From positions 1-32,997 of IMG/VR virus record IMGVR_UViG_3300042387_000746: a stretch of DNA of 32,997 bases; one strand, given 5' to 3'. Under the pieces are notes generated by a model. It did not search any database, had not been told where the DNA came from, and saw only the letters and a program-made list of their open reading frames with translations. The translations under genes and the position numbers were made by a program. Of the stretch, positions 10,071 to 32,997 are shown in pieces (the stretch's first letter is position 1; each line of letters starts with the position of its first letter). Origin of the DNA: a virus.

Positions 10071-10075
10071 TGTTG

Positions 10076-10462
10076 TGGAGGTGATGGGATTCGAACCCAT
10101 GTCTTACAAAGTAACCATAATACCAGCAAATTACACGTTTAGGATAAGGTTTAATCTTATTCACCTTCCAAAATAATTGGGGCCGAATGGTTAGTTCAGC
10201 GATTCCACCAACCTATCAGTTTTAGGGAGCCGATAAGTAATGCTCCGGGTTGTTCACTTCTATTTAAACCCCACGAGTGATGCGGGTGGTGATTATGCTG
10301 CTACAGCGTAATCGTAAGCTCCTACAAATGCCATAGCATCTTCGAAGTTCCAAGTAGATAATTCTACGTCGGTTATTGTTTTGTACAGATTTAAAGACAT
10401 CTAGCACTTCTGTCTACGTGTGATACTACAATTCTCATTGTAATCAATTCCGAGTCACCCCC
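10076..10462 (-). ncRNA. ssrA: tmRNA (transfer-messenger RNA), phage-encoded
   Basis: This is a complete one-piece tmRNA of 387 nt. The acceptor stem GGGGGTG (10462-10456) pairs with CACCTCC (10083-10077, one G-U pair), with discriminator A at 10076 and no encoded CCA. The T-arm is ATGGG-TTCGAAT-CCCAT. Helix P2 is supported by GTAGTATC with GGTATTAT and ACACGT with ACGTGT. Stems fitting the pseudoknots are visible, e.g. AGACA/TGTCT before the tag and, after it, GGAGC/GCTCC interleaved with TATC/GATA. The tag reading frame (10322-10293) encodes GAYDYAVAA and stop, after the alanine carried by the RNA. tmRNA frees stalled ribosomes and marks nascent proteins for proteolysis with SmpB, which is not encoded here. 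It has its own promoter and terminator between the baseplate and polymerase genes. Confidence 0.95.
10293..10322 (-). other. tmRNA proteolysis-tag reading frame (GAYDYAVAA-stop)
   Basis: Codons GGA GCT TAC GAT TAC GCT GTA GCA GCA TAA. The glycine resume codon matches my recollection of Bacteroidota tags, which begin with Gly. The C-terminus is AVAA rather than the usual ALAA recognised by ClpX. The resume codon is inferred from alignment to known tags. Confidence 0.8.
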
Positions 10463-16164: not shown

Positions 16165-18579
16165 TTATTGAGTTTTAATTATGATAGATGCACTCACTCC
16201 TTTATTATTACCACTAGCGTTTACCAATGAACGCATATTTATTTCCTGTCTTGCATTTCCAAATTCGTTACCATCTTTAAATGGTCTCACAACTAACAAT
16301 GCCGTATTCTCTCCTATACTTCCTTGGTTCAACGCAACCATAGTTACTCTATATTCAGATTGTTTCAAACGTCCGTGGTTTATTATACGTGTTATTGGTT
16401 GACTATACAACGTTTCATTATCTATTATTTTTTGATTATCTACATAAACATCTATTCTATCACCATCTATTTCTGCAGAGTCATAAAAGTAAAGATGTAT
16501 ATTAGTACTTTCTTTTGGTACTACTATTGTTTTCACAGTGTTTATATCCGTACCAGTTATTTGTGATATATCAGGCGGCGGTGGTGGTGGTAGTGGTGGC
16601 GGCGGCGGTGGTGGTAGTGGTGGCGGCGGTGGCGGCGGCGGTACTACTATATTTACATCTGGTGTTGGTGCTGGCGCACCACCAAGCATACCTCCTGAAG
16701 TTGGAGGTGTTGGAGGTGGTGGTGGTGGAGTTGGCACAGGTGGTGGTGGTCCAGTTACCGGTGGTGGTGGAGTTGGCGGTGGTGGCGGCGGTGGCGGTGG
16801 TGGCGGTGGCGGTGGTAGCGGTGGCGGTGGTGGCGGCACTGCTGGTATAATATTAGGTATACCTGTTAATTTTGTAGGAGTAGTACCAATTGTTTTTGTT
16901 GTAGTTATATTTGGCGGTATAGTTTGTACCGGATTTTGTTTCTTCGTAGGAATGGATGGTGGTGGAGGTGGTGGTGGTGGCGTTGCTTTTGGTTTACATT
17001 TACCAAAATCATACAAAGAACTTTCATTAACATTTTCTCTACCAAGTAAGAATTTAAATGTCAATTCAACTTCTATAATCATTGGTGCTTTATAATAATC
17101 ACTATCCCCACCATTCATACCAATTTCCCAAGGAGCATTATCAGGAGCAGTATATGTTAAAGATTCAATAAATCCCAACTTATCAATATACATGTCACCA
17201 ATTGTCATTTTAATAAATGGTGCAGTTGCTTTTAATGCTGCGCCGGAATATCTTTGTGGGTATGCTAATCTACTTAACTCTCCTAATCGTTTCCACATAG
17301 CTTGATGTTCATCAACAGCTTCGGAAAATACTTTAAAATTCAAAGTTACTGCTCTCTCAATGTGTCCATATGAATAAAATGGCAATGGGTTACCAGCAAA
17401 TGCTTTAGATTCCCAGTTTGGAGAAAATACTTCAGATAAACTCGTTAATGTTGCTCTAAAATAAAGATAATTCGATGATGCTAAACCTATAAATTTAAAA
17501 GGTATAAAATCAAAACTATCTATTGGTTTCTTTGTAAATGGATATAATACTTTTCCTGCTGCATTTGCAGTTGCTACACCCAACTTATTCAACATATCAC
17601 CCTTCAAACCCATACCAAAGCCTCTAGTAGTATGAATTGTATTCTTTTTTCTTACTTTGGTATATTCAGTACCATTCATAAGAGAAAAAGTATTTATGTA
17701 ACTAGTTATTTTATTTATTGGAGGATTGAATGTTTTGACTTGCGGTGGTAATTTTTGTCCTCTTAATCTATTTAAATTTCCCCCTTTTGAAGTAAATAGC
17801 ATAATAGTTGATAAATCATTTCTATCACCTATAATTGTATTAGTATAATCAACCGATTTTGAATATAATGCTCCACTATTATACCTCCCACCCGATTTTG
17901 CTAAATTTTGCCCTGCTTCAGTTCTACTACCAAATAATGCTTTACCTAATGCATTTTTTGCAGCAGTTATTCCGCTTGATAATAATCTATTAGGTACTCC
18001 GCTTAATCCACCTTTTGTGTTATCTGCCAAAAACCTGCCTGCCCAACTTCCACTACTACCATCCTTTAAAGTTTTTAAAGTTGTTAATAAATCCGTTTCT
18101 AATCCTTTTTTAAATATATCGTTTTGTACAACTCTTGTTGGGATTAATTTTTCAGGAAAAGTTACACCAAGTTTACTTAAAAGGTTTTTACCAAACTTTT
18201 CAATTTTTTTTATAAATCCACCTAATAAACCATTTGTATTACTACCATTAGATGCTGCTCTCATATCATCAAGCATATTGGTAGTTTTTCTTTTCAATCT
18301 AAATAAATCAGTACCATATAAAGCTGGCCCTGATAATAACATTAATGCGTTTAATCCAGTTACTTCTTCTTCAAATCGTGTCTCTTTATCTTTAACCGAA
18401 AGTTTTTTTCGTATTCCCCTTTGTAATTTGAACGCTGGAACTAATAATGGATTAGATGGTTCGTTATCAATATCTTTACTATTTCTTATCGCAAAATGCT
18501 TTTGCGCAGTTTCAACTTTACCATTATCTTTAAATGATATTTGTTGAGATTGAAATAGTTCTAAAATTGATTTTCCCAT
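16165..18579 (-). CDS. Tube-initiator-like baseplate protein, paralogue 2, with polyproline linker and C-terminal beta domain, 804 aa
   Basis: This is a paralogue of the downstream gene. N-terminus MGKSILELFQS; shared KKLSVKDKETRFEEEVTGLN region and GLLGG; tube-like domain at about 360-520 with YFRATLTSLSEVFSPNWE, DEHQAMWKRLGELSRL and PWEIGMNGG...APMIIEVELTFKF. Residues about 527-668 form an extreme proline tract with several PPPPPP runs, the longest 14 consecutive prolines. This is broken only by short segments such as PPTSGGMLGGAPAPTPD. A C-terminal domain (about 669-804) follows, with IHLYFYDSAEIDGDRIDVYVDNQKI; it looks like a beta-sandwich of a kind seen in surface proteins. The first ATG at 18579 shares one base with the stop of the tape measure gene. 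The tract would need EF-P for translation. Confidence 0.75.
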   Translation of the reverse strand: MGKSILELFQSQQISFKDNGKVETAQKHFAIRNSKDIDNEPSNPLLVPAFKLQRGIRKKLSVKDKETRFEEEVTGLNALMLLSGPALYGTDLFRLKRKTTNMLDDMRAASNGSNTNGLLGGFIKKIEKFGKNLLSKLGVTFPEKLIPTRVVQNDIFKKGLETDLLTTLKTLKDGSSGSWAGRFLADNTKGGLSGVPNRLLSSGITAAKNALGKALFGSRTEAGQNLAKSGGRYNSGALYSKSVDYTNTIIGDRNDLSTIMLFTSKGGNLNRLRGQKLPPQVKTFNPPINKITSYINTFSLMNGTEYTKVRKKNTIHTTRGFGMGLKGDMLNKLGVATANAAGKVLYPFTKKPIDSFDFIPFKFIGLASSNYLYFRATLTSLSEVFSPNWESKAFAGNPLPFYSYGHIERAVTLNFKVFSEAVDEHQAMWKRLGELSRLAYPQRYSGAALKATAPFIKMTIGDMYIDKLGFIESLTYTAPDNAPWEIGMNGGDSDYYKAPMIIEVELTFKFLLGRENVNESSLYDFGKCKPKATPPPPPPPPSIPTKKQNPVQTIPPNITTTKTIGTTPTKLTGIPNIIPAVPPPPPPLPPPPPPPPPPPPPPTPPPPVTGPPPPVPTPPPPPPTPPTSGGMLGGAPAPTPDVNIVVPPPPPPPPLPPPPPPPLPPPPPPDISQITGTDINTVKTIVVPKESTNIHLYFYDSAEIDGDRIDVYVDNQKIIDNETLYSQPITRIINHGRLKQSEYRVTMVALNQGSIGENTALLVVRPFKDGNEFGNARQEINMRSLVNASGNNKGVSASIIIKTQ
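16571..16998 (-). repeat. GC-rich polyproline-coding low-complexity tract
   Basis: On the minus strand this stretch is largely CCA/CCG codons and encodes residues about 527-668 of the 804-aa baseplate paralogue. A run of 14 Pro lies at about 16773-16814. Synonymous mixing of CCA and CCG suggests selection for protein sequence, not simple slippage. It stands out as GC-rich in an AT-rich genome. Confidence 0.9.
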
Positions 18580-21119
18580 TAGCGTTGTACATATGAGTTT
18601 GCTGCGCTTTGTCCTGCTATCTTAGTGATACCTGATGTAACTTTTCTACCATCCATATGTACTGCTATTTTACCAGCTGCCATATCTGCTCTTAATCCTT
18701 GAATTTCTGCAATCAATGGTCCCATATCAACACCAGCACCACTACCACCACCCATCAAACTACTAATACCATTTGCTAACATACCCAAAGGAGACATACT
18801 CATTGCCTTTCCTAATATATCCGAAGGATTTTTAGCTGCTATTAAAGTATCTGCTGGATTGGTTGATATGATTTTTCCGTTTTGTATCACACCATCATTT
18901 ACGGACCCGCCATCAGTAGCTTCATTTGTTGCAGTGTCAGAACCCATTCCCAATAGAGATTGAATAGAACTAGGCAAAAGATTTGTTAATCCACCCTTCA
19001 TCCAAGAAATTATACCATCCCACCACCCCATCAATTTTTCTTTAACTGATGAAAATGAGTCACCTATTGCATCTATTATTGCTTTTGGTATCGATGTTAT
19101 TACTTTTAGTACACCATCAAAAACAGAATTTAAACCCTTTCCCAATTGCCCCATATCCATTGTAATAAGTCCCACAACTATATCGTATATACCACCAAGC
19201 ATATCAACAACTCCCTCTAAAACGTTTGCAAAAAGACTTATACCAACAGACAACACACCACCTATTACACTTCCAATTATATTAAACACTGTAATAAGAA
19301 ATTTTCCAGATTTGGATGTGGAATCAAAAACACCAAATATTCTTGCTACTTGTTCACTAACACGTTTAAATGCTGCTGATAATGGTGTCATAAATCCAGA
19401 ATAAAGTGCTGCTATCATTTTTACAATTGGTGTAACAAAGGCAATAACTGCTTGTCCCATAGGTAAAAATGAATCCATAAATACGTCACCCATTCCCTTT
19501 AGTATATAACCTAATGCATGTATCTGTCCTTGCATTTCCTTCTGCCCTTTTTGTCTTTTAACTAAAGTTTTTAAATCATCTTCATTAATATCACTAAGCT
19601 TTTTACCATTCTTTAATTGTTCTATACCAGCAGCTTGTGCTTCTTTATCTAAATGGGAGAATTTTTCTCTGATATGTAATCCGTTAGCTAATTCGGAAAC
19701 TTGCATACCAGTTGATTGAACAATAGCATCTTGTTCAAATTTTGTTAATTTAGTAATATCACCAACATTACCAACCGCATCTAAAACAGCCTCATACATA
19801 CCAGGCATATCACCGGCAGCTGCTGCTGACCTTGCTATACTTAAATTAAAATTCTTACCTAAAATTGCTCCAGCATTTAACTCATCCGTTAAGCTGGTTT
19901 CAAAGTTAAGTAATTTATCTGCCATACTAGTCATTTGTGTAATGCTAGTACCCATCTTTGCAGCTTGAATAGCTGCAGCTCCCATTTCTTCAACAGAACC
20001 ATGAAAGTAATTGTACATGGCTTCCGAGTTAGCCGCCATATCGGCTATCACTTTAGTAGGTGCAACTTTTGCTAATTTTGCGGCTTCTACTGTGTTGGCA
20101 ATTGCATATTGTGCCTGTTCTTGATTTAAGTGTGCCGATGATTGGAATAAATGATTTAATTTTGTTTGGTCATCAACAGCTATACCAAAGTTTGCGTTGA
20201 GTACAGCCATAGAAGTCAAAACAGCATCAGATGCTCTTTGTGTACCATGAAATGCATTGTAAAAAGATGCTGCATATCCTGCTACTTCTTTCATGCTTAT
20301 TCCTAGTGCTCTGGTCTCTGCACTTATTTTACTTATTTGACGTTCTACATCTTTGGTTTGTGAATTTAGTAATCCAGTAGATTTTCTAAACTCCTCAGCA
20401 GCTGCTTCAATTTGATGCATTCTAATAACACCCAATGCAAGTGTTGCTACTATTGCTGCTACTATTGCTTGAGGACCAGCTAACATTGGTGCTATTCTAG
20501 CTGCTGCTACACTTAATCCTCTTATTCCTCCACCTACACCACTTGTTAAAGCTTTTGTAAAAGTACCTCCACTTTTTAAAACTTTGTTAAATGAACCAGT
20601 AAAACCTCCAGTAAACGCTCTACCCATTCTGTTTATGCCACCATTTATCTTATCAAATGGTATCATATTACTCATCATCTTTCCGATAACAGGAATATCT
20701 TCCAGTTCATGTTTTAAATGATGTAGTTGGTCTTTCATCTTACCAGTAACACCATCAACTTTACTTGCTACTTTTTCTAAAATTTCCTTTCTTTTTGTTT
20801 CTCTTGCTAAAATTAATGATGATGCTTGTAAATATTGTCTTACTATTGTATTTTGCATTTGAAGGGCAACTACAATTCCTCTATTATTACTTATTTGTTT
20901 TGTACCTAAAGCAAGATGTCTTTTCTTCAATTTTTCAATTGCCTCCTCTGCCGTTACGGCATCTTTAATACCGGAAACAATTGATTTTTGAAGTTCCACT
21001 TCATTTTTTAATGCTTTATTAACCTTACCATGACCCTTTAATAATTCATCATAATCTTTGGTCATAGATGCGGTTAATTTTTGCATCTCCTTTAAGTCAT
21101 TTAAACTTGTATCTGCCAT
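18579..21119 (-). CDS. Tail tape measure protein, 846 aa
   Basis: This is a long, largely helical protein. The N-terminal 150 residues are charged coiled coil (KEMQKLTASMTKDYDELLKGHGKV). Gly/Ala-rich hydrophobic stretches follow, e.g. IVAAIVATLALGV near 215-228 and repeated segments from about 535 to 660 (MGQAVIAFVTPIVKMIAALYSGF). The C-terminus ends HMDGRKVTSGITKIAG, a hallmark of phage tape measure proteins. It sets tail length, occupies the tube lumen and is ejected ahead of the DNA. T4 uses gp29, so the Gly/Ala-rich design is closer to siphovirus and P2-like tape measures. The stop overlaps the ATG of the polyproline paralogue by one base, and it starts 10 nt after the 89-aa gene. Confidence 0.9.
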   Translation of the reverse strand: MADTSLNDLKEMQKLTASMTKDYDELLKGHGKVNKALKNEVELQKSIVSGIKDAVTAEEAIEKLKKRHLALGTKQISNNRGIVVALQMQNTIVRQYLQASSLILARETKRKEILEKVASKVDGVTGKMKDQLHHLKHELEDIPVIGKMMSNMIPFDKINGGINRMGRAFTGGFTGSFNKVLKSGGTFTKALTSGVGGGIRGLSVAAARIAPMLAGPQAIVAAIVATLALGVIRMHQIEAAAEEFRKSTGLLNSQTKDVERQISKISAETRALGISMKEVAGYAASFYNAFHGTQRASDAVLTSMAVLNANFGIAVDDQTKLNHLFQSSAHLNQEQAQYAIANTVEAAKLAKVAPTKVIADMAANSEAMYNYFHGSVEEMGAAAIQAAKMGTSITQMTSMADKLLNFETSLTDELNAGAILGKNFNLSIARSAAAAGDMPGMYEAVLDAVGNVGDITKLTKFEQDAIVQSTGMQVSELANGLHIREKFSHLDKEAQAAGIEQLKNGKKLSDINEDDLKTLVKRQKGQKEMQGQIHALGYILKGMGDVFMDSFLPMGQAVIAFVTPIVKMIAALYSGFMTPLSAAFKRVSEQVARIFGVFDSTSKSGKFLITVFNIIGSVIGGVLSVGISLFANVLEGVVDMLGGIYDIVVGLITMDMGQLGKGLNSVFDGVLKVITSIPKAIIDAIGDSFSSVKEKLMGWWDGIISWMKGGLTNLLPSSIQSLLGMGSDTATNEATDGGSVNDGVIQNGKIISTNPADTLIAAKNPSDILGKAMSMSPLGMLANGISSLMGGGSGAGVDMGPLIAEIQGLRADMAAGKIAVHMDGRKVTSGITKIAGQSAANSYVQR

Positions 21120-21129
21120 AAAGCTTTAA

Positions 21130-21399
21130 TTATTTTTTAGTAGCCCATTTCTTCATAAAAGGTGGAACTTCCAATCCTTTATCAATCAAATCATCAATCA
21201 ATACTCTAGCTCTATCCATATCAGCATCTGCGGCTTTAACGGCAGATTGAATATCTTTATCATTTTTGATAGCTTTTTCAATCTGATATCCCAATACTTT
21301 TCCAAGTAAAGTCATTATCAAACTTTCTTTTATAATACCATGCTTTTTAACAACTTCTCTAAAAAGTTGTCTATCTTCGTTTGTTACTTTTAATTTCAT
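21130..21399 (-). CDS. Hypothetical small protein upstream of tape measure, 89 aa
   Basis: I do not recognise a family. The protein is all-helical and highly charged (MKLKVTNEDRQLFREVVKKHG; IEKAIKNDKDIQSAVKAADADMDRARVLIDDL), with no cysteine and no signal peptide. Its place directly before the tape measure gene is where phages usually encode tail assembly chaperones or tape-measure partners. It starts a transcription unit: the upstream terminator ends at about 21436 and a late-type ATATTTAT motif is at 21421-21428, 22 nt before the ATG. Confidence 0.75.
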   Translation of the reverse strand: MKLKVTNEDRQLFREVVKKHGIIKESLIMTLLGKVLGYQIEKAIKNDKDIQSAVKAADADMDRARVLIDDLIDKGLEVPPFMKKWATKK

Positions 21400-21435: not shown

Positions 21436-21465
21436 AAAAAAAGTGAGGATTATCTCCTCACTTTT
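21436..21465 (-). terminator. Intrinsic terminator overlapping the end of the frameshift extension
   Basis: An 11-bp stem (AAAAGTGAGGA at 21465-21455 with TCCTCACTTTT at 21449-21439) has a 5-nt loop and a T-run. The stop codon of the out-of-frame extension (21452-21450) lies in the loop region, so the terminator coincides with the end of that reading frame and not with the in-frame stop at 21649. Confidence 0.85.
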
Positions 21466-21662
21466 ATCTTAGAATTAGCTTTCTGATTTGATTCTTCCTG
21501 CTGTTTATTTTCTCTCTTTTTTGCTTCAACCAATTCATTGTAATAGAATAATCTCATATGAACCGGCATTGCATATACATCTGATTGTATAAATCCCACA
21601 CCATAATAACATAATTCGAAAATTTGTTTATGTAGGATTTTAAAATAGTTATTCGGAAGGCC
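21450..21662 (-). CDS. Out-of-frame C-terminal extension of the gp26-like protein (candidate programmed frameshift product)
   Basis: After the 251-aa gene stops at 21649, the +1 (equivalently -2) frame is open for 70 codons from 21662 to the TAA at 21450. It encodes a protein-like sequence: NNYFKILHKQIFELCYYG, then FIQSDVYAMPVHMRLFYY and a charged helix NELVEAKKREN. The segment has no early ATG or ribosome-binding site. A TAG in its own frame (21674-21672) lies just upstream, so it can only be reached by shifting near the seven-T run at 21669-21663. A shift there would give a product of about 317 aa. Short and long forms of a tail chaperone encoded just before the tape measure match the G/GT arrangement. 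A sequencing error in the T-run would also explain it. Confidence 0.6.
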   Translation of the reverse strand, partial: GLPNNYFKILHKQIFELCYYGVGFIQSDVYAMPVHMRLFYYNELVEAKKRENKQQEESNQKANSKIKVRR

Positions 21663-22404
21663 AAAAAAAGCCTACGCCCATTGGAATCGAGCGTACCTCC
21701 TTTTCTCCACTATCGGGATTTTCATATTCAAATTCCATTTTAACATCAGGTGACATTTTTTTAATATGTTCTCTGAATGCTTTTGTATCTTTTGTTAAAA
21801 ATCCGTTGTTAATAAAATTAGTAATATAACCCATTTCACCATTACCATCAACCGAAGTAATCATAAATCTATATCGTGTTGTTAATTCAAACGATGCATC
21901 TTTATTCATTTTTTGTAAAGCTTTGATTTCGGTATCAATTTGCTTTTCATCACCATGTGTAAGTAACTTAAACTCTAATACATTTTTAGTTGTTGGAGTT
22001 GTGAATGTATAACGATTTTGTCTATTTAAAACACTCATATCAACATCTTTTGTTTGTACAGTTCTTAAATCTACAACAACTTCGCTTTTGTTTTCCATCT
22101 CATCTTCCATCTCAATTTTATATTCGTGACCATATCCTAAGATACGAGTTGCTAACATAATAGCATTTTTATCACCAATTAAAATATCATCTGGATTAAC
22201 TTCATTATCTACAATAATAGATTCGAATAATTTATCCAAAACTATACCTTTTTTGATAAGATTTGTTGATGCTAGAATTTCTTCTTCTCTAGCAGTCATA
22301 TACTTTATTTCAAGCGTACCTTTTGATAGGGGACTTGATTCTGGGTAACATCTACCTTCCGATGGTAAGGATATAACCTCTGTTGGGAATTGATTTTTGT
22401 TCAT
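21649..22404 (-). CDS. T4_baseplate (gp26-like) protein / tail assembly chaperone, 251 aa
   Basis: The sequence fits the T4_baseplate family (gp26-like). The N-terminal segment contains VISLPSEGRCYPESSPLSKGTLEIKYMT (in part) followed by AREEEILASTNLIKKGIVLDKL near 35-60. The region DILIGDKNAIMLATRILGYGHEY near 73-95 and the end GVGFFWPSE are also typical. It lies between the tail tube and tape measure, where a tail assembly chaperone is expected. The seven-T run eight codons before the stop can shift translation into a 70-codon extension (see 21450-21662). The start ATG is preceded by the ATATTTAT motif at 22428-22435. Confidence 0.8.
   Translation of the reverse strand: MNKNQFPTEVISLPSEGRCYPESSPLSKGTLEIKYMTAREEEILASTNLIKKGIVLDKLFESIIVDNEVNPDDILIGDKNAIMLATRILGYGHEYKIEMEDEMENKSEVVVDLRTVQTKDVDMSVLNRQNRYTFTTPTTKNVLEFKLLTHGDEKQIDTEIKALQKMNKDASFELTTRYRFMITSVDGNGEMGYITNFINNGFLTKDTKAFREHIKKMSPDVKMEFEYENPDSGEKEVRSIPMGVGFFWPSE
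21663..21669 (-). other. Candidate slippery site (seven T on the coding strand)
   Basis: In-frame codons are GGC TTT TTT TGG. A Phe-tRNA can re-pair perfectly with TTT after a +1 or -2 slip and enter the extension frame. The window between the TAG of the new frame and the TAA of the old frame is under 30 nt. Confidence 0.55.
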
Positions 22405-22457: not shown

Positions 22458-22483
22458 AAAAAAGGGATATCTTTCAATATCCC
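22458..22483 (-). terminator. Intrinsic terminator after the tail tube gene
   Basis: A 7-bp stem GGGATAT/ATATCCC with a 6-nt loop is followed by six T. It lies 23 nt after the tail tube stop codon and allows high separate expression of the tube. Confidence 0.8.
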
Positions 22484-22505: not shown

Positions 22506-23000
22506 TTAGAATTCAAGAATTGCGTAATCGTAAGTCAATGTCATTGTTGCAGTTGCTACTTCATTTGAAGATGCATCCAAATCACCAAAGTTTACCTGTG
22601 TTGGGAATGCTCCTATCAATTTCCATTGTTCAACTTTATCACCAACTGGTCCTAACATAAAGATATCAATATCTTTTTTGTAGAAATCAGCGTATCCATC
22701 TCTACCAGTAATTGATTCGTGTCCTAAACGAACCCACTCCATTACCGCTTGTGCTGCTGAAGGAACAATTGGGTCATAAAGTGTGATTTCTAAGTCTTGC
22801 CATTCACCCTTTCCCTTCAATTGTCTTTTAACGTTGATATGGTCGATTGTTACTTTCTCAAAATTTATTTGAGGTCTGTTACCTGTCTTAACCATAAATG
22901 CAGGTATACCTGTATTGTTGAACTGCATGTAAAAGCGGTTCTTCATTTTTGGTTCGAAGGAGGTGTACATCATATCTCCAAAATCTAAAATATTTGCCAT
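22506..23000 (-). CDS. 19: Tail tube protein (gp19-like), 164 aa
   Basis: Length and order match T4 gp19 (163 aa), which polymerises into the inner tail tube. The sequence starts MANILDFGDMMYTSFEPKMKNRFYMQFN. It contains the family pattern VKRQLKGKGEWQDLEITLYDPI near 57-78, the helix AAQAVMEWVRLGHES near 82-96 and the final strands NEVATATMTLTYDYAILEF. It follows the sheath gene, is preceded by an ATATTTAT motif (23024-23031) and is followed by its own terminator. This suits the many copies needed per virion. Confidence 0.93.
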   Translation of the reverse strand: MANILDFGDMMYTSFEPKMKNRFYMQFNNTGIPAFMVKTGNRPQINFEKVTIDHINVKRQLKGKGEWQDLEITLYDPIVPSAAQAVMEWVRLGHESITGRDGYADFYKKDIDIFMLGPVGDKVEQWKLIGAFPTQVNFGDLDASSNEVATATMTLTYDYAILEF

Positions 23001-23052: not shown

Positions 23053-25392
23053 TTATGCGTTAAAACTTGCTCCAGTTGGTAAGATGTTGAAATCAATTAC
23101 TATGAATTCAGCTGTCTTAGCCGGTTGTAAGAAAATTTGTCCTGCTAATATGTTTCTATCAATTACATCAGGTGTGTTATTAGTTTCATCCATAACAACT
23201 CTGAATGCGTATAAACCTTGTCTTTGTTGGATACCCTCTAAGTAAGGATTCACAGTGTTGATAAATCTTCCTCTAGTCGAATCAGTATTTTGTTCAAACA
23301 CTAAGAAACGAGAAGTAGATGCTATAAACTTCTTAACAGTGATAAGTAATCTTCTTACGTTGATTCTATCTAATGCTGAAGCCTTATCTTGCAATGTCTT
23401 CTGTCCAAATGCTACAATACCTTGTCCAGGGAATACAGCTATTGGGTTTACTTTGTTTTCATATAGAGTATCTCTCTCAGCATGCGTTAATCTATTCAAC
23501 ACACTAACTGCTCCTACGATACCACCTCTATTCAAACCAGCAGGTGCGAACCATTCAGCCGCCAATCTATCGTTACTAGCAAATACTGCCGGTAATAATA
23601 CTGATGGAGGTACGGTTGTTAATTTATTTGTGTTTGTATCAACAGTCTTAACCCAAGGATAGTAAGTTGCTACATAGTTTGAATCTACTGCATTTGCTTG
23701 CTCCGTTGCTTCAGTAATAGTATCATCATAATCGTTGAAATCAGCGATATAGAAACAGTCTGCTCTTTCTTCAACCATATCAATTACTTTTGTAGTAATA
23801 GATGGGTGTAAACCTCTAACAATACCAGGAGTTACTACCATATTGATATCATACTCATCAGGATTAGATACAGCGTTAATTGCTTTTGTATATGCTACTG
23901 AACCATTTGCTGTTGATGTAGAACAATTAAATCCTTGCGTATTTGCTGGTCCCCATACACCAAGATCACCAGCTTTAGCTATCTTTACAGTTGGGTTCAT
24001 ACCATCATATCCACCTTGGAATGCTAATACAAATTGTCTCTTAACCATATCAGTTGATGCTGAACCAGTCATTACATATGATAATTGTGAATCAAATGCG
24101 AAATCAACGTTTGCTCCAACTTCTGCATTTATAGGAAGTGGTTTCAAATATTGTTTGTTATCCATTGCCACACCTTCAGTTTCAAAATCAAATCCACTAA
24201 AATATATTGGAGATGATGATGTGTTACCAGTTGATTTTGTTTGATAAACAACTGCTGGTACTGTTAGTGCTTGTGCATTATTTGTTGTTTCGATTGGATT
24301 TGTGTAAGCTCCATGTCCAAATGGTGCTGCTGATACAGGGAATGTTCCAGCTTCTCTAACTTCCACTCTTACATATTTTGATTGATTTGAGTAATCACCA
24401 TTTTCAGTAATTTTACCATTACTATCAATAGTCATATATCTATCACCAATTCTTCTAGCTATGTAGTTAGGAGATGCAGGGTCTAAGTTTACATTATTAT
24501 ATGTTTCAATTACACTCTTTCTCTTATCAGTATCGGAATATCCTCTTACAGTTACAGTGAAAGTTGAGTAATCAGTTCCACCATCTTCACCAGCTGCTTT
24601 AACGTTAGAAATACCAACTTTAAATTTAGTATTGTAGTTAGAACCATGACCCATTGTAGCAAAACGGAAAAGTTCATACCTTACATCACTTACTATTTGA
24701 GATTTAACCCAAGGAGTAAATGCTTCAGAATATGCAGGTGTTGTTTCATCTCCAGTATATTCTTGATTTGGTAATTCTGCTATTGTAATTACAATATTAT
24801 TTCCACCAGAACCGGTAAATGAACTTGCTACATTTTCAAAGTATGTATAAGTGTATGCTTTTTTAGCTCCAAATGGAGATTCGCCAAACACATCTGATAA
24901 ATCGTTAGTAGCAGTTGGTAGTATTGATGCTGATGTAAATACGCCAGATGCTGATAAATGGAATGAACCATCTAATGCATCATTACTTACTACACTAGCT
25001 CCTTCAAAACCATAGTTTTGAAATCCAGTTTCAGTAGAGTATAGTACTCCAATTAGTTTAGTACCAGGTTTATTTGATGCGGATGAACCACTAGCAAATA
25101 TACCTAAAGGTTTAACTTGAGTATAACCACCGATACCAGCTACTCTTACTACAGTTGCACTTCCTGCTTCTGATAGATATCTTTGTACTGCATATTCAGT
25201 ATAATATGTTCCATCAGGCGTTCCGAAGATTTCTTGGAATTCTGATTGTGTTCTCACAATTGTAGGAACGAATGCAGGTCCTTGCTTAAAAGGTCCTATA
25301 AATGCTGCTCCGATTTCTCCAACTCCTTGCGCTATGAAGGATAGGTCATTTTCTCTTGTGAAGACCCCAGGGGATACGATTCTTTCTGCCAT
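23053..25392 (-). CDS. 18: Contractile tail sheath protein (gp18-like), 779 aa
   Basis: The N-terminus (ERIVSPGVFTRENDLSF) is the standard sheath start, followed by GAAFIGPFKQGPAFVPTIV and an EFQEIFGTPDGTYYTEYAVQ region near 50-70. The C-terminal part (about 600-779) has the conserved sheath core: FAPAGLNRGGIVGAV, NPIAVFPGQGIVAFGQKTL, INVRRLLITVKKFIA and a final beta-strand region FIVIDFNILPTGASFNA. It is longer than T4 gp18 (659 aa), with an extended outer domain at about 120-480. The sheath surrounds the tube and contracts to drive it through the envelope. A late-type motif lies 60 nt upstream. Confidence 0.96.
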   Translation of the reverse strand: MAERIVSPGVFTRENDLSFIAQGVGEIGAAFIGPFKQGPAFVPTIVRTQSEFQEIFGTPDGTYYTEYAVQRYLSEAGSATVVRVAGIGGYTQVKPLGIFASGSSASNKPGTKLIGVLYSTETGFQNYGFEGASVVSNDALDGSFHLSASGVFTSASILPTATNDLSDVFGESPFGAKKAYTYTYFENVASSFTGSGGNNIVITIAELPNQEYTGDETTPAYSEAFTPWVKSQIVSDVRYELFRFATMGHGSNYNTKFKVGISNVKAAGEDGGTDYSTFTVTVRGYSDTDKRKSVIETYNNVNLDPASPNYIARRIGDRYMTIDSNGKITENGDYSNQSKYVRVEVREAGTFPVSAAPFGHGAYTNPIETTNNAQALTVPAVVYQTKSTGNTSSSPIYFSGFDFETEGVAMDNKQYLKPLPINAEVGANVDFAFDSQLSYVMTGSASTDMVKRQFVLAFQGGYDGMNPTVKIAKAGDLGVWGPANTQGFNCSTSTANGSVAYTKAINAVSNPDEYDINMVVTPGIVRGLHPSITTKVIDMVEERADCFYIADFNDYDDTITEATEQANAVDSNYVATYYPWVKTVDTNTNKLTTVPPSVLLPAVFASNDRLAAEWFAPAGLNRGGIVGAVSVLNRLTHAERDTLYENKVNPIAVFPGQGIVAFGQKTLQDKASALDRINVRRLLITVKKFIASTSRFLVFEQNTDSTRGRFINTVNPYLEGIQQRQGLYAFRVVMDETNNTPDVIDRNILAGQIFLQPAKTAEFIVIDFNILPTGASFNA

Positions 25393-26030: not shown

Positions 26031-29000
26031 TTATTCTTTTTTGTTTATTAGTATATTATTCAACATTTCTTTGATATCAGAAATTTCTTTATTTTGATTT
26101 TCTATAATTTTTTGTTGTTCTTTTATAGCTTCAACTAATAAAGGTACTACCTTATCATATTCAATTGTTAAATAATTTTCACCAGTTTTAGAACCGATAA
26201 TATTATTGTCTTCATCAAACTTAGTATCAAATGGTGCTAAGTGTACAATTTCAGGTATAACCGATTGTACTTCTTGTGCCGATAGACCTAATTGTACTTT
26301 AGTTTCTTTATAACCAAATGTTTTTGCCAAATCATTATTAACGTAATAGAAACCATTTAATTTAGAAAGTTTTCCTAAAGCATCTTCGATAGGTCCTAAC
26401 TTAGTTTTTAATCTTTCATCAGAATAGTAAGCGATGATGTTATCTTGCGCAAATATCCATCCGTAAGCGTATAAATAGTTAGCGTTCCATCTATAAACCC
26501 TTGAATCAGTTCTACCATAGAAGTAATATCCAGTATCATATCTATCGTAGTAAATGTTTGCTCTAATATCATTTTCAACAAATACTGTATTACCATTGTG
26601 CCAGTTAAGATACATTGGATAACCATTACGAGAGTCAATGTGTAAGTTACCATTTGATGTAAACATACTTGCCCAACCATCAACTCTTTCGTTTGTACCA
26701 ACTCTTAAATAAGCTCCCCAATACCAGTTAGGTCCGTGAAGTGTACCACCTCTCATTCTTAAACCCTGATTATCAGTATTATGTGGGTCTAAATAGTATC
26801 CAGTATCTTGGTTATCATAGAATATAGGTCCTCTTACAGAACCACCTGCTTCTAAGTATTGGTTTACATATACACCCCATCCTCTACAAGACATTCTCTC
26901 CGAACCAGCATAGTACATATAGAAGTTAGTATCCCAATACCAAACCCATCCATATGAATTATCATGCACACCACAATCACCACCTCTACCCATAAAGACG
27001 AATCTACTACGAATACCATATCCACTCCATCCATTTCTACCACCACCATAAGTTGCTATGTTACCATATGAGTTACCCTCACATTCAGGTGACCATATAC
27101 CATGTCCGTATGATTCAAAATACAACCCACAACATCCTTGAGGTCTAAACCAGTTGTTTGCTAATATAGCTGAAAATTGTGAATATCCATTAGGGTTTGC
27201 ATAGTATCCAGTATCATTTCTATCATAGAAAATAGTACTATAAATTCCACCAACACCATAGATATCATATCCATTCATTTCCAAATAACCATAGAATCTC
27301 ATTGGGTTATTTGTGTAATAGTTCATATAGATACTGTGTGAGTATGAATCTATGTGTAAGTTACCACCTAAGAAAATTCTACCATATCCATTTCTAGACC
27401 ATAATACTCCATCTAATCTTATTTCACTAAATTGTGATTGTGAATTAGGGTCTACATAATATCCTGTATTATTTGCATCGTAATACATTCCGGCATATAA
27501 AGCTCCTCCACTACCATCGTTACGGTCATGCATTGCAACAGTTGTCCAACCAGACCAACCACCCCAGGCATTTCTAAATCTTAAGTTACTTATCGGTCCA
27601 CCCACTAACTGCCAACCAGTGTTACTATTTCCACCATATGCATAGTGGAAAGCTTGTGTACCAACCCAATGGCTTGTTCCACTAGGTTGATTTGGTGGGT
27701 TTGACCAAGAATCAATAAAGCCCGAACCCCAAGAGGCCACCGAGTTCATATCAGTAGTTCCCCATCCCATTGAACCTACCCAATAACCAGTATCTCCAGT
27801 ATAATCATTTCTACGGAAGTTACCTCTACCGGTCAATCCAATTCTCATTTTGGAATAATCATCCAATCCATTCCATCTACTATCACCATCACCATTAAAA
27901 TAAAATGAAGTATTGTGGTCATAATATATAGAAGCTCTAACATCAGCATGTGCATATGCACCATGTGACCTCATTGACATTCTATCAGCCCCTGCCCAAT
28001 AAAGGTTTAGTTCAGCTCCACTCATATACCAAACCCAACCTCTAGCCGAATCATGCACACCAACGTTATCACCGGTAGTACTCATAAACGTATAACGAGA
28101 ACCTATACCATATCCACTCCATCCATTTCTACCACCGCCATAAGTTGTGATATGTCCATATGGATTACCTTGTTGTTCTGCTATTACAAATCCTCTACCA
28201 TATGAATTCCAATACATGCCCAACGCACCATTGATATAATACCAATCGTTTATTGTTAACCAGTTAAAGTTAGAACCAGATGCCGGGTCTACATAGTAAC
28301 CTGTATTATTTGAATCATACATTATATATGCGTACAAATAATACCCTGGATTAGAATTACTCATTACAAATTCCAACCATCCAGATGTAGAACCACCCCA
28401 CTTACCTCTTGCCCAATATCTATTAGCAAGAGCATCGTGTGCTCCTACCATCATCCAACCATACGCAGTTCCACCTCCTGATGTTGCATAGTGTTGTCCG
28501 GATACGATACCTTGAGCGTGAACATATCCACCACCTTGTGGGTGACCTGTTCCACCTCCCCAAATATCCCATCCAGCAAAACCACCTTCCCAAGCAGTGT
28601 CCCAGTTACCATAAGATGTACCCCATCCGTTTGTACCAGTCCAATGGTTTGTATCACCAGTAATATCTCTACGATTTCCTCTTTCTCTACCTAAGTTAAA
28701 TGCCCCTCTACGAGTATAATCAGTAACTGCGTAAATATTTGATGTAGATAATGCATCAACATAATATCCTGTATTATCGTAATCATACATTATCTTAGGT
28801 CTAATACCACCACTACCAGGTATTTGTATAGTATTATTACTTTCACCCATGTACATTGTCATAGATGAGTTGTTACCATACCAATGTTGTGCTTCAACTA
28901 CATATGCTGAGAAATCCCAACGAGGTTCATTGTTTACGTTGTTTACTAATTTAATTCTATTACCAACAATATAGTTTGTACGAGATGTTGATGCAAAGTC

Positions 29001-32000
29001 ACCATAGTATCCAGCATCATTTGAATCATAGTAAATTGGAGCGTACATAGCACCTCCAATAGATACAGTGCCACCTATAAATGCTCCACCAGCAAATCCA
29101 AAACGAGAATAAGTTGTACCATTGTTTCTTAATGCTAAGTGATGGTCATATCCACTTCCATACTCATAACCCAATCCGTACATATTACCTAATGGCCAAC
29201 TTTCACCAATTGTCCAAATTACTTTTGATGATGTACCATTAACGTTGTAATCACCCATCAAACCACCACTGTTTCTACTTACCAAATAGTTACTATACCA
29301 CATTCTACCGGCAAAGTTACCTTCATTTAAGTTAGAATAAGAAGCAGGGTCTGTGTAGTATCCCGTGTTGTTATTATCATAAAATATAGGTGAACGCATT
29401 GAACCATATGCCCATAAATTACCAGATGTATCACCTTCTACAACATTACTACCACCAGAATTTCTAAAAATAAAATAGCTTGCGTATTGAAAATACCAGT
29501 TACTACTATGATATTGAATTTTACCTGCAAATTCACCATCCCAAGAAGATGAGTCTGCTCTCCAAGAACCAACAGTTCTTAATGCAGTTGTTGAGTTAGG
29601 GTCTAAGTAATATCCACTATTATTTGAATCATAATAAATTGGCGAATACATAGCATTTCCTGCTTGTATGTTACTACCAGCATAGAATGATAATGGAGTT
29701 CTTAAATTACGAAGGTCACCAGAGATATATGAGTAAGAATCTGATTCAATTGCTACTGAATATCCTTCGCCCACATTCATTACACCATCGTAATATGTAC
29801 CATTTTGTATTTTACGAAGAACAACTTGTCCATAAGACCAAGATGATGAACCATTACCAATTACGATACAATATCTGCCATCTTTAGTACCAACTCTTAC
29901 AGGTTTATCAGTTTGTCCAACTACTTCTGCATTTATGTTATACCACTGTCCATTCCAATTATGTCCACCAACTATTACGGTTGCTGCTGCATTTCCATTA
30001 TATTCATAAATGTCAATATGAGCATGAATCATACCATAGTTACCAGTTCCACCAGGAAATTTGATAACAACTGCTCCAGTTGCACCAGTTGCTCCCCAAT
30101 ATGCCACAGGTCTACCAACTATATTATTCATAGCAATACCACCCGCTATTCTCAATGAAGTTGCGCTTGTATTTGGGTCTAAATAATATGAGGTATTGTT
30201 TCTATCATAGAATATAGCTGAACGTATATCATTTTGATTGATATAAGTTCCATCATTAATTGTTATTGGTGCATTTAAATAAAAGTTTGGTCTATCTGTA
30301 TAGATATGAGCATGACTTGTATTTGCAGGACCAAAGTTTATATAACCAGAATCCGTTCTAAAGTGTACACCCCAAGTTCCAGCCCCATCGAACCTACCAT
30401 TATTAGTTGATGTACCAAATCTTAAAACGTTATATACAGATGTTGATGCAGGGTCTGAATAGTAATTGGTATTATTATAATCATAGAATATAGGAGAACG
30501 TAATGAACCAAATGCAAATAGGTTTGAACTACTATCAATATATCCTCTTTGGCCATTTCCAGTTACAAATTCAATATAAGTTCCATCCGAACCCAATGAT
30601 AAATATGTAGATGAGTAAACACCAGGTCTACCCCAAGCTGCTCCTAATCGTACATCACTAACACCATTACCTTCAGCGTTTTGAACTCTAAATCCACTAT
30701 CATTTGTAGTATATGTTACTCTATTAGATGTACCACCTCTCATTACGAATCCACCATTTGCAGGATTTGTATAATATGTAGTATCATCCGTATCATAGAA
30801 TATTGGTGCATACATTCCACCAGATTCCATTCTAGTAGTAGTACCATAAACATTAATTACACCATTAACCTCCAAACGTTTGTTCATATAGAAAATAGCT
30901 CTATCAGTTTCCATATGGAAATAAGAACTATTCATTGAACCAAAATCACCATATCCAGTTGAAGTTGATATTCTTAATGAATCAGAACTACCCGGTTGTA
31001 ATATTGCGTATCTTTGGTCAGTTGTACCATGCACATATCTAGTTCCAGAATGTAAATGTATCTTTGAATAAGTTTGTTCTGATTTATATAATTTTAATCC
31101 ACAAATATGAACAACACCAACGTTAGATGCATAGTTTATTAATAAAACAGGACTAGCGTATTGTGTACCAGATATAAACTGATTCAAACTTCCACCTACT
31201 CCACGAATTATACCACTTACTTTATACCACTGTCCATCGTTTCTGCTATTGGTATCAAATTCTTCACCAGCAGCACCCCAATATCTTTGTGTATTTCCAA
31301 ATGATGAGTTTGCTGAATTGTACATTGTCCAACCCAAATATAATCTTTGGTCGGTATCACCACCATCAATTACTTTAATCCAACATTCAAAAATATATTC
31401 ACTATTAACATCTACTTTAATTCTTCTACTATCATCAAAACCAAAATATCCAGTTACTTTAAAACAACCTTCAGCTGGTGCTGTATTATCATTAACTTTT
31501 GTAATTACCGTTGAAGTAGTACCCAATTGAGCTCTAACTTCTGCATCTGTCATTTGGTCAGTTATATTATAGAACGAACCATTATCGATATTTGCTGTAT
31601 AGTTTTCAATTGTACCGCCCGTTACAACACTAAATCCTCCTACGTTTATATTTGCAAAAGTAACCGAATCCGTAGTTCTTACGTTTTGGTCCATCGCATA
31701 TAATTCATTAGCTCCTTGCCCAGTATTAACTGTTGCGAATGTTACACCATCAGTAGAACGAACCGGCTGGTCCATTGCGTATAATTCATTAGCTCCTTGT
31801 CCAGTATTAACAGTAGCAAATGTTACACCATCCGTAGTTCTTACGTTTTGGTCCATTGCGTACAATTCATTAGCTCCTTGCCCAGTATTAACTGTTGCGA
31901 ACGTTACTGCATCTGTTGTTTGAACATTTTGATTCATTAAATAAACTTCAGTTGCACCTTGTCCCGTATTAATTGTACCACTAAGAACTACGTTACCACT

Positions 32001-32997
32001 TACGTTTACGTTATCATCGAATGACCATCTGTCATTTCCTTCATCCCAAATAAATTGTTTTGTTGCTGCATTACCTCTCTTAACTTCTATACCAGAGTTT
32101 TCAGTTGGTGCAGTTGATGCTCCAATATCTGCATTAAGTGTAATAATATTATCACCTATATTAAGAGTTGTTGTATTAATATATGTTGTAGTACCACTTA
32201 CAGTAAGGTCACCACTAATTGTAGCGTTACCAGTTACCGCAAGAGTTGTACCATCAAATCTTAAATTTGCTTCAACGGTTGCATTTGGTGCAGTTCCGTT
32301 TAATGTGATTACACCATTATCAGTTGTACCAGTTAATGCTAATAATCCAGAAGAACCGCTACTTCCACTACTTCCGCTTGTACCAGATGAGCCAGAAGTT
32401 CCGGATGAACCACTACTGCCACTTGTACCAGACGAACCTGATGTGCCAGACGAACCTGATGTACCACTACTTCCAGAAGTTCCTGATGACCCAGAAGAAC
32501 CTGATGAACCACTACTTCCACTTAAACCAGAAGTACCACTACTTCCCGATGAACCAGAAGTTCCCGATGAACCGGATTTTCCGCTTGTTCCCGATGAACC
32601 AGAAGTTCCCGATGAACCAGAAGTTCCAGCAGTACCATCTTTACCAGAAGTTCCCGATGAACCAGAAGTTCCAACAGTACCATCTTTTCCTGATGTACCA
32701 CTACTCCCAGATGTGCCAGACGTTCCGCTACTTCCAGAAGTTCCCGATGTGCCAGATGAACCAGAAGTTCCATCCTTACCTGCCAATCCACTTGAACCAG
32801 AAGACCCGGATGTTCCATCTTTACCATCTGAACCAGATGAACCAGAAGTTCCTGATGTTCCAGACGTTCCCGAAGAACCAGATGTGCCAGAAGACCCAGA
32901 TGAACCTTCAAATCCATCTTTACCACTACTTCCAGAAGTTCCAGATGTGCCAGACGTTCCATCTTTTCCAGTTGAACCATCTTTTCCCGATGTTCCA
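26031..32997 (-). CDS. Giant tail fibre with collagen-like repeats and S74 chaperone domain (N-terminus outside window)
   Basis: The frame is open to the right edge, giving at least 2321 residues; the apparent start at 32786 is only a TTG inside the repeats. In order from the N-terminal side: collagen-like GTS/GSS/GKD triplets (32997-32346); a beta-rich part with SGDLTVSG and NIGDNIITLNAD; four 27-residue repeats (31976-31653); a lectin-like region; thirteen YDxNNTGYYxDP-type modules (30812-26518) with larger domains between them; and a C-terminal S74 intramolecular chaperone (about 26430-26031) with YSDERLK, LGLSAQEVQ and a trimeric coiled coil IKEQQKIIENQNKEI. The S74 Ser-Lys dyad is expected to cut itself off after trimer folding. 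It is a receptor-binding fibre. Upstream virion-attachment residues are not visible. Confidence 0.93.
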   Translation of the reverse strand, partial: GTSGKDGSTGKDGTSGTSGTSGSSGKDGFEGSSGSSGTSGSSGTSGTSGTSGSSGSDGKDGTSGSSGSSGLAGKDGTSGSSGTSGTSGSSGTSGTSGSSGTSGKDGTVGTSGSSGTSGKDGTAGTSGSSGTSGSSGTSGKSGSSGTSGSSGSSGTSGLSGSSGSSGSSGSSGTSGSSGTSGSSGTSGSSGTSGSSGSSGTSGSSGTSGSSGSSGSSGLLALTGTTDNGVITLNGTAPNATVEANLRFDGTTLAVTGNATISGDLTVSGTTTYINTTTLNIGDNIITLNADIGASTAPTENSGIEVKRGNAATKQFIWDEGNDRWSFDDNVNVSGNVVLSGTINTGQGATEVYLMNQNVQTTDAVTFATVNTGQGANELYAMDQNVRTTDGVTFATVNTGQGANELYAMDQPVRSTDGVTFATVNTGQGANELYAMDQNVRTTDSVTFANINVGGFSVVTGGTIENYTANIDNGSFYNITDQMTDAEVRAQLGTTSTVITKVNDNTAPAEGCFKVTGYFGFDDSRRIKVDVNSEYIFECWIKVIDGGDTDQRLYLGWTMYNSANSSFGNTQRYWGAAGEEFDTNSRNDGQWYKVSGIIRGVGGSLNQFISGTQYASPVLLINYASNVGVVHICGLKLYKSEQTYSKIHLHSGTRYVHGTTDQRYAILQPGSSDSLRISTSTGYGDFGSMNSSYFHMETDRAIFYMNKRLEVNGVINVYGTTTRMESGGMYAPIFYDTDDTTYYTNPANGGFVMRGGTSNRVTYTTNDSGFRVQNAEGNGVSDVRLGAAWGRPGVYSSTYLSLGSDGTYIEFVTGNGQRGYIDSSSNLFAFGSLRSPIFYDYNNTNYYSDPASTSVYNVLRFGTSTNNGRFDGAGTWGVHFRTDSGYINFGPANTSHAHIYTDRPNFYLNAPITINDGTYINQNDIRSAIFYDRNNTSYYLDPNTSATSLRIAGGIAMNNIVGRPVAYWGATGATGAVVIKFPGGTGNYGMIHAHIDIYEYNGNAAATVIVGGHNWNGQWYNINAEVVGQTDKPVRVGTKDGRYCIVIGNGSSSWSYGQVVLRKIQNGTYYDGVMNVGEGYSVAIESDSYSYISGDLRNLRTPLSFYAGSNIQAGNAMYSPIYYDSNNSGYYLDPNSTTALRTVGSWRADSSSWDGEFAGKIQYHSSNWYFQYASYFIFRNSGGSNVVEGDTSGNLWAYGSMRSPIFYDNNNTGYYTDPASYSNLNEGNFAGRMWYSNYLVSRNSGGLMGDYNVNGTSSKVIWTIGESWPLGNMYGLGYEYGSGYDHHLALRNNGTTYSRFGFAGGAFIGGTVSIGGAMYAPIYYDSNDAGYYGDFASTSRTNYIVGNRIKLVNNVNNEPRWDFSAYVVEAQHWYGNNSSMTMYMGESNNTIQIPGSGGIRPKIMYDYDNTGYYVDALSTSNIYAVTDYTRRGAFNLGRERGNRRDITGDTNHWTGTNGWGTSYGNWDTAWEGGFAGWDIWGGGTGHPQGGGYVHAQGIVSGQHYATSGGGTAYGWMMVGAHDALANRYWARGKWGGSTSGWLEFVMSNSNPGYYLYAYIMYDSNNTGYYVDPASGSNFNWLTINDWYYINGALGMYWNSYGRGFVIAEQQGNPYGHITTYGGGRNGWSGYGIGSRYTFMSTTGDNVGVHDSARGWVWYMSGAELNLYWAGADRMSMRSHGAYAHADVRASIYYDHNTSFYFNGDGDSRWNGLDDYSKMRIGLTGRGNFRRNDYTGDTGYWVGSMGWGTTDMNSVASWGSGFIDSWSNPPNQPSGTSHWVGTQAFHYAYGGNSNTGWQLVGGPISNLRFRNAWGGWSGWTTVAMHDRNDGSGGALYAGMYYDANNTGYYVDPNSQSQFSEIRLDGVLWSRNGYGRIFLGGNLHIDSYSHSIYMNYYTNNPMRFYGYLEMNGYDIYGVGGIYSTIFYDRNDTGYYANPNGYSQFSAILANNWFRPQGCCGLYFESYGHGIWSPECEGNSYGNIATYGGGRNGWSGYGIRSRFVFMGRGGDCGVHDNSYGWVWYWDTNFYMYYAGSERMSCRGWGVYVNQYLEAGGSVRGPIFYDNQDTGYYLDPHNTDNQGLRMRGGTLHGPNWYWGAYLRVGTNERVDGWASMFTSNGNLHIDSRNGYPMYLNWHNGNTVFVENDIRANIYYDRYDTGYYFYGRTDSRVYRWNANYLYAYGWIFAQDNIIAYYSDERLKTKLGPIEDALGKLSKLNGFYYVNNDLAKTFGYKETKVQLGLSAQEVQSVIPEIVHLAPFDTKFDEDNNIIGSKTGENYLTIEYDKVVPLLVEAIKEQQKIIENQNKEISDIKEMLNNILINKKE
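26518..30812 (-). repeat. 13 copies of a YDxNNTGYYxDP fibre module
   Basis: Thirteen copies with consensus (S/A)PIFYDSNNTGYYxDPxS are spaced unevenly along the fibre. Examples are IFYDTDDTTYYTNP, IYYDSNNSGYYLDP, MYYDANNTGYYVDP and IYYDRYDTGYYFYG. They are probably short stalk or coil repeats between receptor-facing domains. Confidence 0.9.
31653..31976 (-). repeat. Four tandem 81-nt (27-aa) repeats in the fibre
   Basis: The unit is TVNTGQGANELYAMDQNVRT + TDGVTFA. Units begin at 31976, 31895, 31814 and 31733, exactly 81 nt apart. The first (N-terminal) copy is the most diverged; the other three are nearly identical. Confidence 0.92.
32346..32997 (-). repeat. Collagen-like Gly-X-Y repeat region of the fibre
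   Basis: The coding strand is built from GGA/GGT/GGC-TCT-TCA type 9-nt units that encode GTSGSSG repeats with scattered GKD triplets. The DNA is highly self-similar and open to recombination-driven length change. It continues beyond the window. Confidence 0.92.

What the first reader, a model, noticed from the sequence alone, without database searches (positions are those of the whole stretch)
21450..21675. Candidate programmed +1/-2 frameshift in the tail chaperone gene
The gp26-like gene stops at 21649, but the +1 frame is open for 70 codons to a terminator that ends exactly with that frame. Entry is limited to a window under 30 nt containing seven T (TTT TTT T). A TAG in the new frame blocks any earlier entry. 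The position before the tape measure gene matches the G/GT tail chaperone system, which usually uses -1 slippage, so +1 or -2 would be uncommon.
Basis: partly seen in the sequence, partly recalled or inferred. Interest (0 to 1): 0.75.

Follow-up and report, generated by a model that had tools for sequence, protein, structure and literature searches.

The report
Conserved +1 frameshift in tail chaperone
A T4-like phage makes a second, longer version of its tail-assembly chaperone by having the ribosome skip forward one base at a run of seven Ts; the same out-of-frame layout is kept in hundreds of related phages, so it is a real, selected signal and not a sequencing slip.

Summary
Confirmed and extended. 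The gp26-like gene (22404..21649, minus strand) stops within six codons of TTT TTT T. The +1 frame is open for about 70 codons across that stop and encodes a conserved three-helix domain. Of 286 non-redundant relatives, 283 keep the extension out of frame: 274 in +1, 8 in -1 at classical T TTT TTC sites, one odd case. None is fused in frame. Relatives with TTC TTT TGG or TTT CTT TGG, which interrupt the T-run, rule out homopolymer slippage and a -2 shift for the family. The common rule is a P-site YUU codon followed by U (UGG, UAY or UUC in the A site), so this is +1 slippage onto UUU. In T7-type sites the preceding base is T in 0 of 139 representatives (68 expected), which avoids a -1 heptamer. 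A stem-loop ending a few nt before the site is enriched in +1 but not -1 members, and SD-like GGAGG lies farther upstream; a stimulatory role is inferred. Profiles and folds place the protein with T4 gp26/gp51, published as tail assembly chaperones. Here one gene with a +1 shift does what T4 does with two genes. Frameshifting in tail chaperones is known; this +1 form in the T4-like family appears to be a new variant.

The parts
21649..22404 (-). TAC-N: gp26-like tail assembly chaperone, 0 frame, 251 aa plus stop
   Evidence: ORF; 70 of 71 aligned relatives match phrog_150, the family of T4 gp26 and gp51; AF2 model pLDDT 93.5 matches baseplate hub proteins and, weakly, two solved tail assembly chaperones
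21663..21669 (-). Slip site TTT TTT T; inferred P-site codon TTT at 21666..21664, A-site codon TGG at 21663..21661; +1 slip gives TTT GGC
   Evidence: Invariant in the 80 closest extension loci; class table; 0 TTC among 146 TTT second codons in representatives
21453..21671 (-). TAC-C extension in the +1 frame (FGLPNNYFKILHKQIF...KIKVRR), entered at 21665; stop TAA 21452..21450
   Evidence: Translation; conserved in 283/286 relatives; AF2 three-helix model pLDDT 87.9
21672..21674 (-). TAG in the +1 frame that blocks entry upstream of the T-run
21673..21695 (-). Stem-loop ending 3 nt before the T-run (8 bp, 7-nt loop), candidate +1 stimulator
   Evidence: pairwise covariation not found within the window's clade
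21696..21700 (-). GGAGG, SD-like, directly 5' of the stem-loop
   Evidence: GGAGG within 45 nt upstream in 69% of 160 representatives; 11.5% expected by synonymous randomisation, 0.8% elsewhere in the gene
21439..21465 (-). Terminator-like hairpin whose loop holds the stop codon of the extension
18579..21119 (-). Tail tape measure protein, 846 aa, downstream of the chaperone
   Evidence: phrog_1272 and phrog_58 tape measure
21130..21399 (-). 89-aa ORF between chaperone and tape measure genes, function not assigned
   Evidence: no credible family match
22506..23000 (-). Tail tube protein (gp19-like)
   Evidence: PF06841 2.5e-14, phrog_4542 5.9e-36
23053..25392 (-). Tail sheath
   Evidence: phrog_23 1e-70, PF04984

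Best explanation
It is a tail assembly chaperone gene decoded in two ways. Most ribosomes read the 0 frame and make the short chaperone (TAC-N, 251 aa, ending ...FFWPSE). A minority pause with peptidyl-tRNA-Phe on the second UUU and UGG (Trp, otherwise very rare in this gene family) in the A site. The P-site tRNA then slips +1 from UUU to the overlapping UUU, and reading continues GGC CUU CCG ... to give the long form (TAC-NC, 317 aa) with a C-terminal three-helix domain. Shown by comparison: the two frames, their conservation, the +1 direction, the YUU_U rule, and selection against T before the T7 run (a -1 heptamer). Inferred: that the ribosome, and not another process, does this in the cell; the pause at UGG; that an upstream stem-loop at the mRNA exit side of the ribosome (perhaps with the GGAGG) pushes towards +1; and that the two forms coat the tape measure and recruit the tail tube as lambda G and GT do.
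For: The extension is out of frame in 283/286 non-redundant loci, 274 of them +1. The 0-frame stop is 5-12 codons past the site in every +1 representative and no in-frame fusion was found. The +1 site reads YTT then T in its three main classes: TTTTTTT 241, TTTCTTT 23, TTCTTTT 7. TTC TTT T appears on at least four separate branches, one in the window's own supported 4-row set (L188, SH-aLRT 99), and TTT CTT T on about 3-4; neither allows a -2 re-pairing or a long homopolymer. The second codon is never TTC among 146 TTT representatives although TTC is 24% of Phe codons elsewhere; a T before T7 is 0/139 against 68 expected, while T is allowed in the interrupted classes (5/23, 3/7). Trp is 70 of 71,729 codons elsewhere in these genes, yet UGG is the usual A-site codon. 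Folding of the 30 nt upstream relative to synonymous randomisation: mean z -1.68, peaking 3 nt before the site in +1 loci, and +0.25 in -1 loci. Huang et al. 2018 (PMC6321510) show that an upstream hairpin next to the site stimulates +1 and attenuates -1 on 70S ribosomes. Identity: phrog_150; folds; place between tail tube and tape measure genes.
Against: No protein or ribosome data; all evidence is comparative. In the T7 class itself, -2 and transcriptional slippage remain formally possible. Two distant +1 members (L101 TTT CTA, L105 TTT TTT AGT) need the shift at the first Phe codon or a mismatch, so the exact codon may vary. Base-pair covariation was not found for the hairpin in the window's clade. 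Representatives are not independent, so the p-values overstate. L247 has the extension in -1 without a -1 site and is unexplained, perhaps an indel.
Confidence: 0.9

Rival explanations
1. The -2 frameshift: the P-site tRNA-Phe moves back two bases on the T-run and reads an extra Phe.
For: The T7 run allows it, and -2 is known in the phage Mu tail chaperone (PMC5009743).
Against: Sister and related phages with the same extension have TTC TTT TGG/TAC or TTT CTT TGG/TAC, where a -2 move meets mismatches but +1 pairs perfectly.
Confidence: 0.04
2. Transcriptional slippage on the T7 run makes mRNAs with six U that read through in frame, perhaps helped by the hairpin.
For: Seven T and a hairpin just upstream resemble slippage or terminator contexts.
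Against: The same extension is kept where the longest T-run is 3 or 4 (30 loci in the TTTCTTT and TTCTTTT classes); 7 is short for slippage (own knowledge).
Confidence: 0.03
3. Sequencing or assembly error, or a decayed gene: the real gene is a plain in-frame fusion.
For: Single metagenomic contig and a homopolymer.
Against: 274 loci, most from separate assemblies, isolate genomes (Flavobacterium immuto phages, Microcystis phage Mel-JY01, Listeria phage LIS04) and interrupted runs all show the same frame.
Confidence: 0.005
4. The extension is a separate protein translated from its own start (coupled re-initiation), with GGAGG as its ribosome-binding site.
For: An SD-like GGAGG is conserved upstream; some records annotate pieces of the extension as separate genes.
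Against: The window has no ATG, GTG or TTG in the extension frame before the conserved FGLP...QIFELCYY part, and 61 of 160 representatives have none at all in that stretch. GGAGG lies mostly 22-31 nt before the site, not at a start-codon spacing. T4 gp51 is a natural in-frame fusion of the two parts.
Confidence: 0.025

Closest known systems
T4 gp26 / gp51 tail assembly chaperones (PF12322, phrog_150; Vladimirov, Gautam and Davidson 2022, Virology 566:9, known here only through papers that cite it)
   Same: Same protein family by profile and fold; short form plus long form with a C-terminal domain; the extension's profile resembles the gp51 C-terminus and -1 extensions (score 28.7 against at most 14.7 for 50 column-shuffled controls)
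   Different: T4 makes the two forms from two duplicated genes; here one gene with a +1 shift
-1 frameshifted relatives of the same family (cyanophage S-RIM8, Aeromonas 65.2, Nitratidesulfovibrio SRB7757; metagenomic L103, L266-L269, L276, L277, L301)
   Same: Same gene layout, same Phe-Phe pivot, related extension
   Different: Shift is -1 at a tandem T TTT TTC heptamer, with T before the run; no upstream stem-loop signal in the eight metagenomic -1 loci
Lambda G/GT and other tail chaperone frameshifts (review PMC5009743)
   Same: Position before the tape measure gene, minority long form
   Different: Lambda uses -1; +1 is rare (HSTV-2 is described there as very likely +1)
Bacterial release factor 2 (prfB) +1 frameshift, CUU UGA
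   Same: P-site YUU followed by U, slip onto UUU; the TTT CTT TGG relatives have the same CUU U G
   Different: A sense codon (UGG, UAY) in the A site instead of a stop; SD-like GGAGG is mostly 22-31 nt away, with a stem-loop between, instead of about 3 nt
Engineered upstream hairpin that mimics an internal SD duplex (Huang, Cho and Chang 2018, PMC6321510)
   Same: Hairpin beside the E-site edge, favours +1 and opposes -1 on 70S ribosomes
   Different: There a designed reporter; here a natural context, function not tested

Membership tests
Frameshifted tail assembly chaperone (G/GT type) | Gene lies between tail tube and tape measure genes | tested here: met
   Tube 22506..23000, chaperone, 89-aa ORF, tape measure 18579..21119
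Frameshifted tail assembly chaperone (G/GT type) | Conserved out-of-frame extension entered at a conserved slippery site near the 3' end | tested here: met
   283/286 loci
Frameshifted tail assembly chaperone (G/GT type) | Both products made, at a fixed ratio, absent from virions, bind tape measure | not testable with these tools
   needs expression or mass spectrometry
Frameshifted tail assembly chaperone (G/GT type) | Chaperone fold | tested here: inconclusive
   The two best solved folds are both phage tail chaperones: 2ob9 Z 5.6, rmsd 3.6, 78 aligned, on residues 1-91; 3klu (YqbN) Z 5.1, rmsd 3.7, 85 aligned, on 128-220; the next is 2.6. Z under 8 is not decisive
T4 gp26/gp51 family (phrog_150) | Profile match | tested here: met
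   70 of 71 aligned family members match phrog_150 at E <= 0.001, best 2.3e-22; the window's own protein alone does not reach the cut-off and falls under the family through its relatives
T4 gp26/gp51 family (phrog_150) | Fold of baseplate hub / gp26-like proteins | tested here: met
   BFVD best matches E 7e-21 to 3e-18, among them the SP-15 baseplate hub subunit, TM 0.83
prfB-type +1 site | P-site YUU followed by U | tested here: met
prfB-type +1 site | In-frame stop codon in the A site and SD about 3 nt upstream | tested here: not met
   A site is UGG; GGAGG is 31 nt upstream in the window, mostly 22-31 nt in relatives
Canonical -1 heptamer X XXY YYZ | T before TTT TTY so that both tRNAs re-pair | tested here: not met
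   C precedes the run in the window; 0/139 T7-class representatives have T
Transcriptional slippage site | Long homopolymer conserved in the family | tested here: not met
   30 loci have runs of 3-4 T only

The most novel reading that the evidence does not exclude
A natural class of +1 frameshift signals in T4-like phages in which a co-translationally refolding stem-loop just upstream of YUU_U, with an SD-like element beyond it, does the work that the SD:anti-SD duplex does in prfB. It would suit hosts that make little use of SD pairing. The same gene family would have switched between -1 (T TTT TTC, no hairpin), +1 (YUU_U with hairpin) and gene duplication (T4).
Probability: 0.45. Interest if true: 0.75.

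Novelty: new variant of a known kind. Interest (0 to 1): 0.6.

Why it matters
No general motif for +1 frameshifting has been set out (stated in PMC10885494), and few natural +1 sites have many aligned relatives. This family gives hundreds, with a simple rule (YUU_U, sense codon in the A site), clear selection against the -1 alternative, and related genes that use -1 at the same two codons. That makes it a natural experiment on what sets frameshift direction, and it predicts a testable upstream stimulator. It also corrects annotation: the extension is missed or listed as a small separate gene in the records checked.

Tried and rejected
Rejected: a -2 shift, transcriptional slippage, sequencing error and separate initiation (see rivals). 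A downstream RNA stimulator: mean z -0.44 over 90 nt, no clear signal. Pairwise covariation of the 8-bp hairpin in 31 window-clade sequences: none (0 double changes, 74.2% paired against 75.5% in shuffles); stems in sub-clades use shifted registers, so only the stability test supports the hairpin. Constant effective spacing from GGAGG to the P site with the hairpin looped out: the spread was too wide to support it. The extension alone matched no PHROG and its fold gave no significant match. Foldseek against PDB gave no significant match to the 0-frame model. The Vladimirov 2022 paper is not held, so whether it already lists +1 members is unknown to me. Pfam gave no credible match to the window protein.

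Full report
What is there. On the minus strand the gene 22404..21649 encodes 251 aa and ends ATG GGC GTA GGC TTT TTT TGG CCT TCC GAA TAA. Seven T lie at 21669..21663. The +1 frame is closed by TAG at 21674..21672, then open to TAA at 21452..21450. Upstream are the tail tube and sheath genes, downstream an 89-aa ORF and the tape measure gene. The record is a 33-kb virus contig.

Is it conserved? The 80 best matches to the extension in viral contigs all carry an upstream gene in the same relative frame, with invariant TTT TTT TGG CCT NCC GAN TAA. More distant searches with isolate phages gave 286 non-redundant loci. 283 have the extension by HMM: 274 in +1, 9 in -1. The three without it are two truncated contigs and L221. 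In all 160 +1 representatives the 0-frame stop lies 5-12 codons from the start of the site, so none is an in-frame fusion. Substitutions in the extension fall mostly at third codon positions (1437/912/2383 for positions 1/2/3).

Which direction? The +1 sites are TTT TTT TGG CCT (201), TTT TTT TAC CCT (28), TTT CTT TGG CCT (20), TTC TTT TGG CCT (4), TTT CTT TAC CCT (3), TTT TTT TTC CCT (3) and rarer forms. A -2 move needs TTT two bases back, which TTC TTT T and TTT CTT T do not offer; +1 onto TTT works in all three main classes if the second codon slips. On a tree of the 0-frame protein these variants arise several times inside the +1 group. L188 (TTC TTT TAC) shares a supported 4-row set with the window. 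Homopolymer slippage fails for the same reason. Eight -1 members all read T TTT TTC, a classical heptamer; cyanophage S-RIM8, Aeromonas 65.2 and Nitratidesulfovibrio SRB7757 do the same. L247 is an unexplained exception.

Selection on the site. In 139 T7-class representatives (under 75% identity) the base before the run is never T, against 68 expected from codon usage, while interrupted classes allow T. One non-representative locus (L250) has T there. T there would create U UUU UUU, a -1 heptamer, or an eight-T run; the data do not separate these two reasons. The second codon is never TTC (0 against 146 TTT; background 24%). UGG sits in the A site although Trp is 0.1% of codons elsewhere. These counts are not independent, so the numbers show direction and size, not exact probability.

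Upstream context. The 30 nt before the site fold better than synonymous randomisations (mean z -1.56 to -1.68, peak with the stem ending about 3 nt before the T-run), falling to -0.3 further upstream. The eight -1 loci show +0.25 there. With codon use taken from the site region itself the signal remains (36 nt, mean -8.1 against -6.2 kcal/mol, Wilcoxon p 3.5e-12). GGAGG occurs within 45 nt upstream in 69% of representatives, 11.5% expected. In the window the stem is 21695..21673 and GGAGG 21700..21696. Pairwise covariation was not found. Huang et al. 2018 (PMC6321510) showed on 70S ribosomes that a hairpin juxtaposed to the site stimulates +1 and attenuates -1, mimicking an internal SD. I infer the same here; it is not shown.

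Identity and function. T4 gp26 and gp51 both match phrog_150 and PF12322. 70 of 71 aligned family members match phrog_150; the window protein itself does not reach the cut-off. Its AF2 model (pLDDT 93.5) matches baseplate hub proteins. Among solved folds the top two are phage tail chaperones, 2ob9 (Z 5.6, residues 1-91) and 3klu (Z 5.1, residues 128-220; YqbN as a tail chaperone is from my own knowledge), which hints at two chaperone-like domains in tandem (below the level that would be decisive). The extension is a three-helix unit (pLDDT 87.9) whose profile resembles the gp51 C-terminus and -1 extensions (score 28.7; best of 50 shuffled controls 14.7). Papers citing Vladimirov et al. 2022 state that some T4-like phages carry a short and a fused long chaperone gene instead of frameshifting, and that polyT -1 signals occur in T4-like TAC-N genes (PMC10885494; PMC12846349). 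The review PMC5009743 says tail chaperones use -1, -2 or +1 in different phages.

Verdict. A real, conserved +1 programmed frameshift in a T4-like tail chaperone gene. The kind is known; the +1 YUU_U form in this family, its avoidance of -1 and its upstream stem-loop look new, subject to the unread 2022 paper.

Noticed in passing
window 10073-10462 (-): A complete phage-encoded tmRNA gene (Rfam RF00023, 71.3 bits; ARAGORN tag VNNPEHYLSAP) with intact tRNA-like ends; the predicted tag does not end in the usual Ala-Ala.
   Followed up: partly
L247 around its 0-frame stop: Only locus whose extension is in -1 without a T TTT TTC heptamer (TTC TTT TGG CCC TCC CGG TAA); one extra C relative to its kin would explain it, real or error.
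   Followed up: partly
L346 3732-3869, L349 3309-3482, L100 5746-5982: In isolate genomes (S-RIM8, Cygsa01, Mel-JY01) the frameshift extension is annotated as a separate small gene, in two of them named baseplate hub assembly catalyst.
   Followed up: yes
window 21649-22404 protein: The model's N-terminal part and its second half each resemble a different solved phage tail chaperone, suggesting a tandem duplication of the chaperone fold in the gp26 family.
   Followed up: no
L349 (Pseudomonas phage Cygsa01) end of gp26-like gene: Extension lies in -1 but the site reads AGC ATT TTC ACC, not a standard heptamer.
   Followed up: no
window 26031-32786 (-): A 2251-aa ORF (TTG start as listed), not examined.
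   Followed up: no
window 22464-22483: Terminator-like hairpin readable on both strands between the chaperone and tail tube genes.
   Followed up: no
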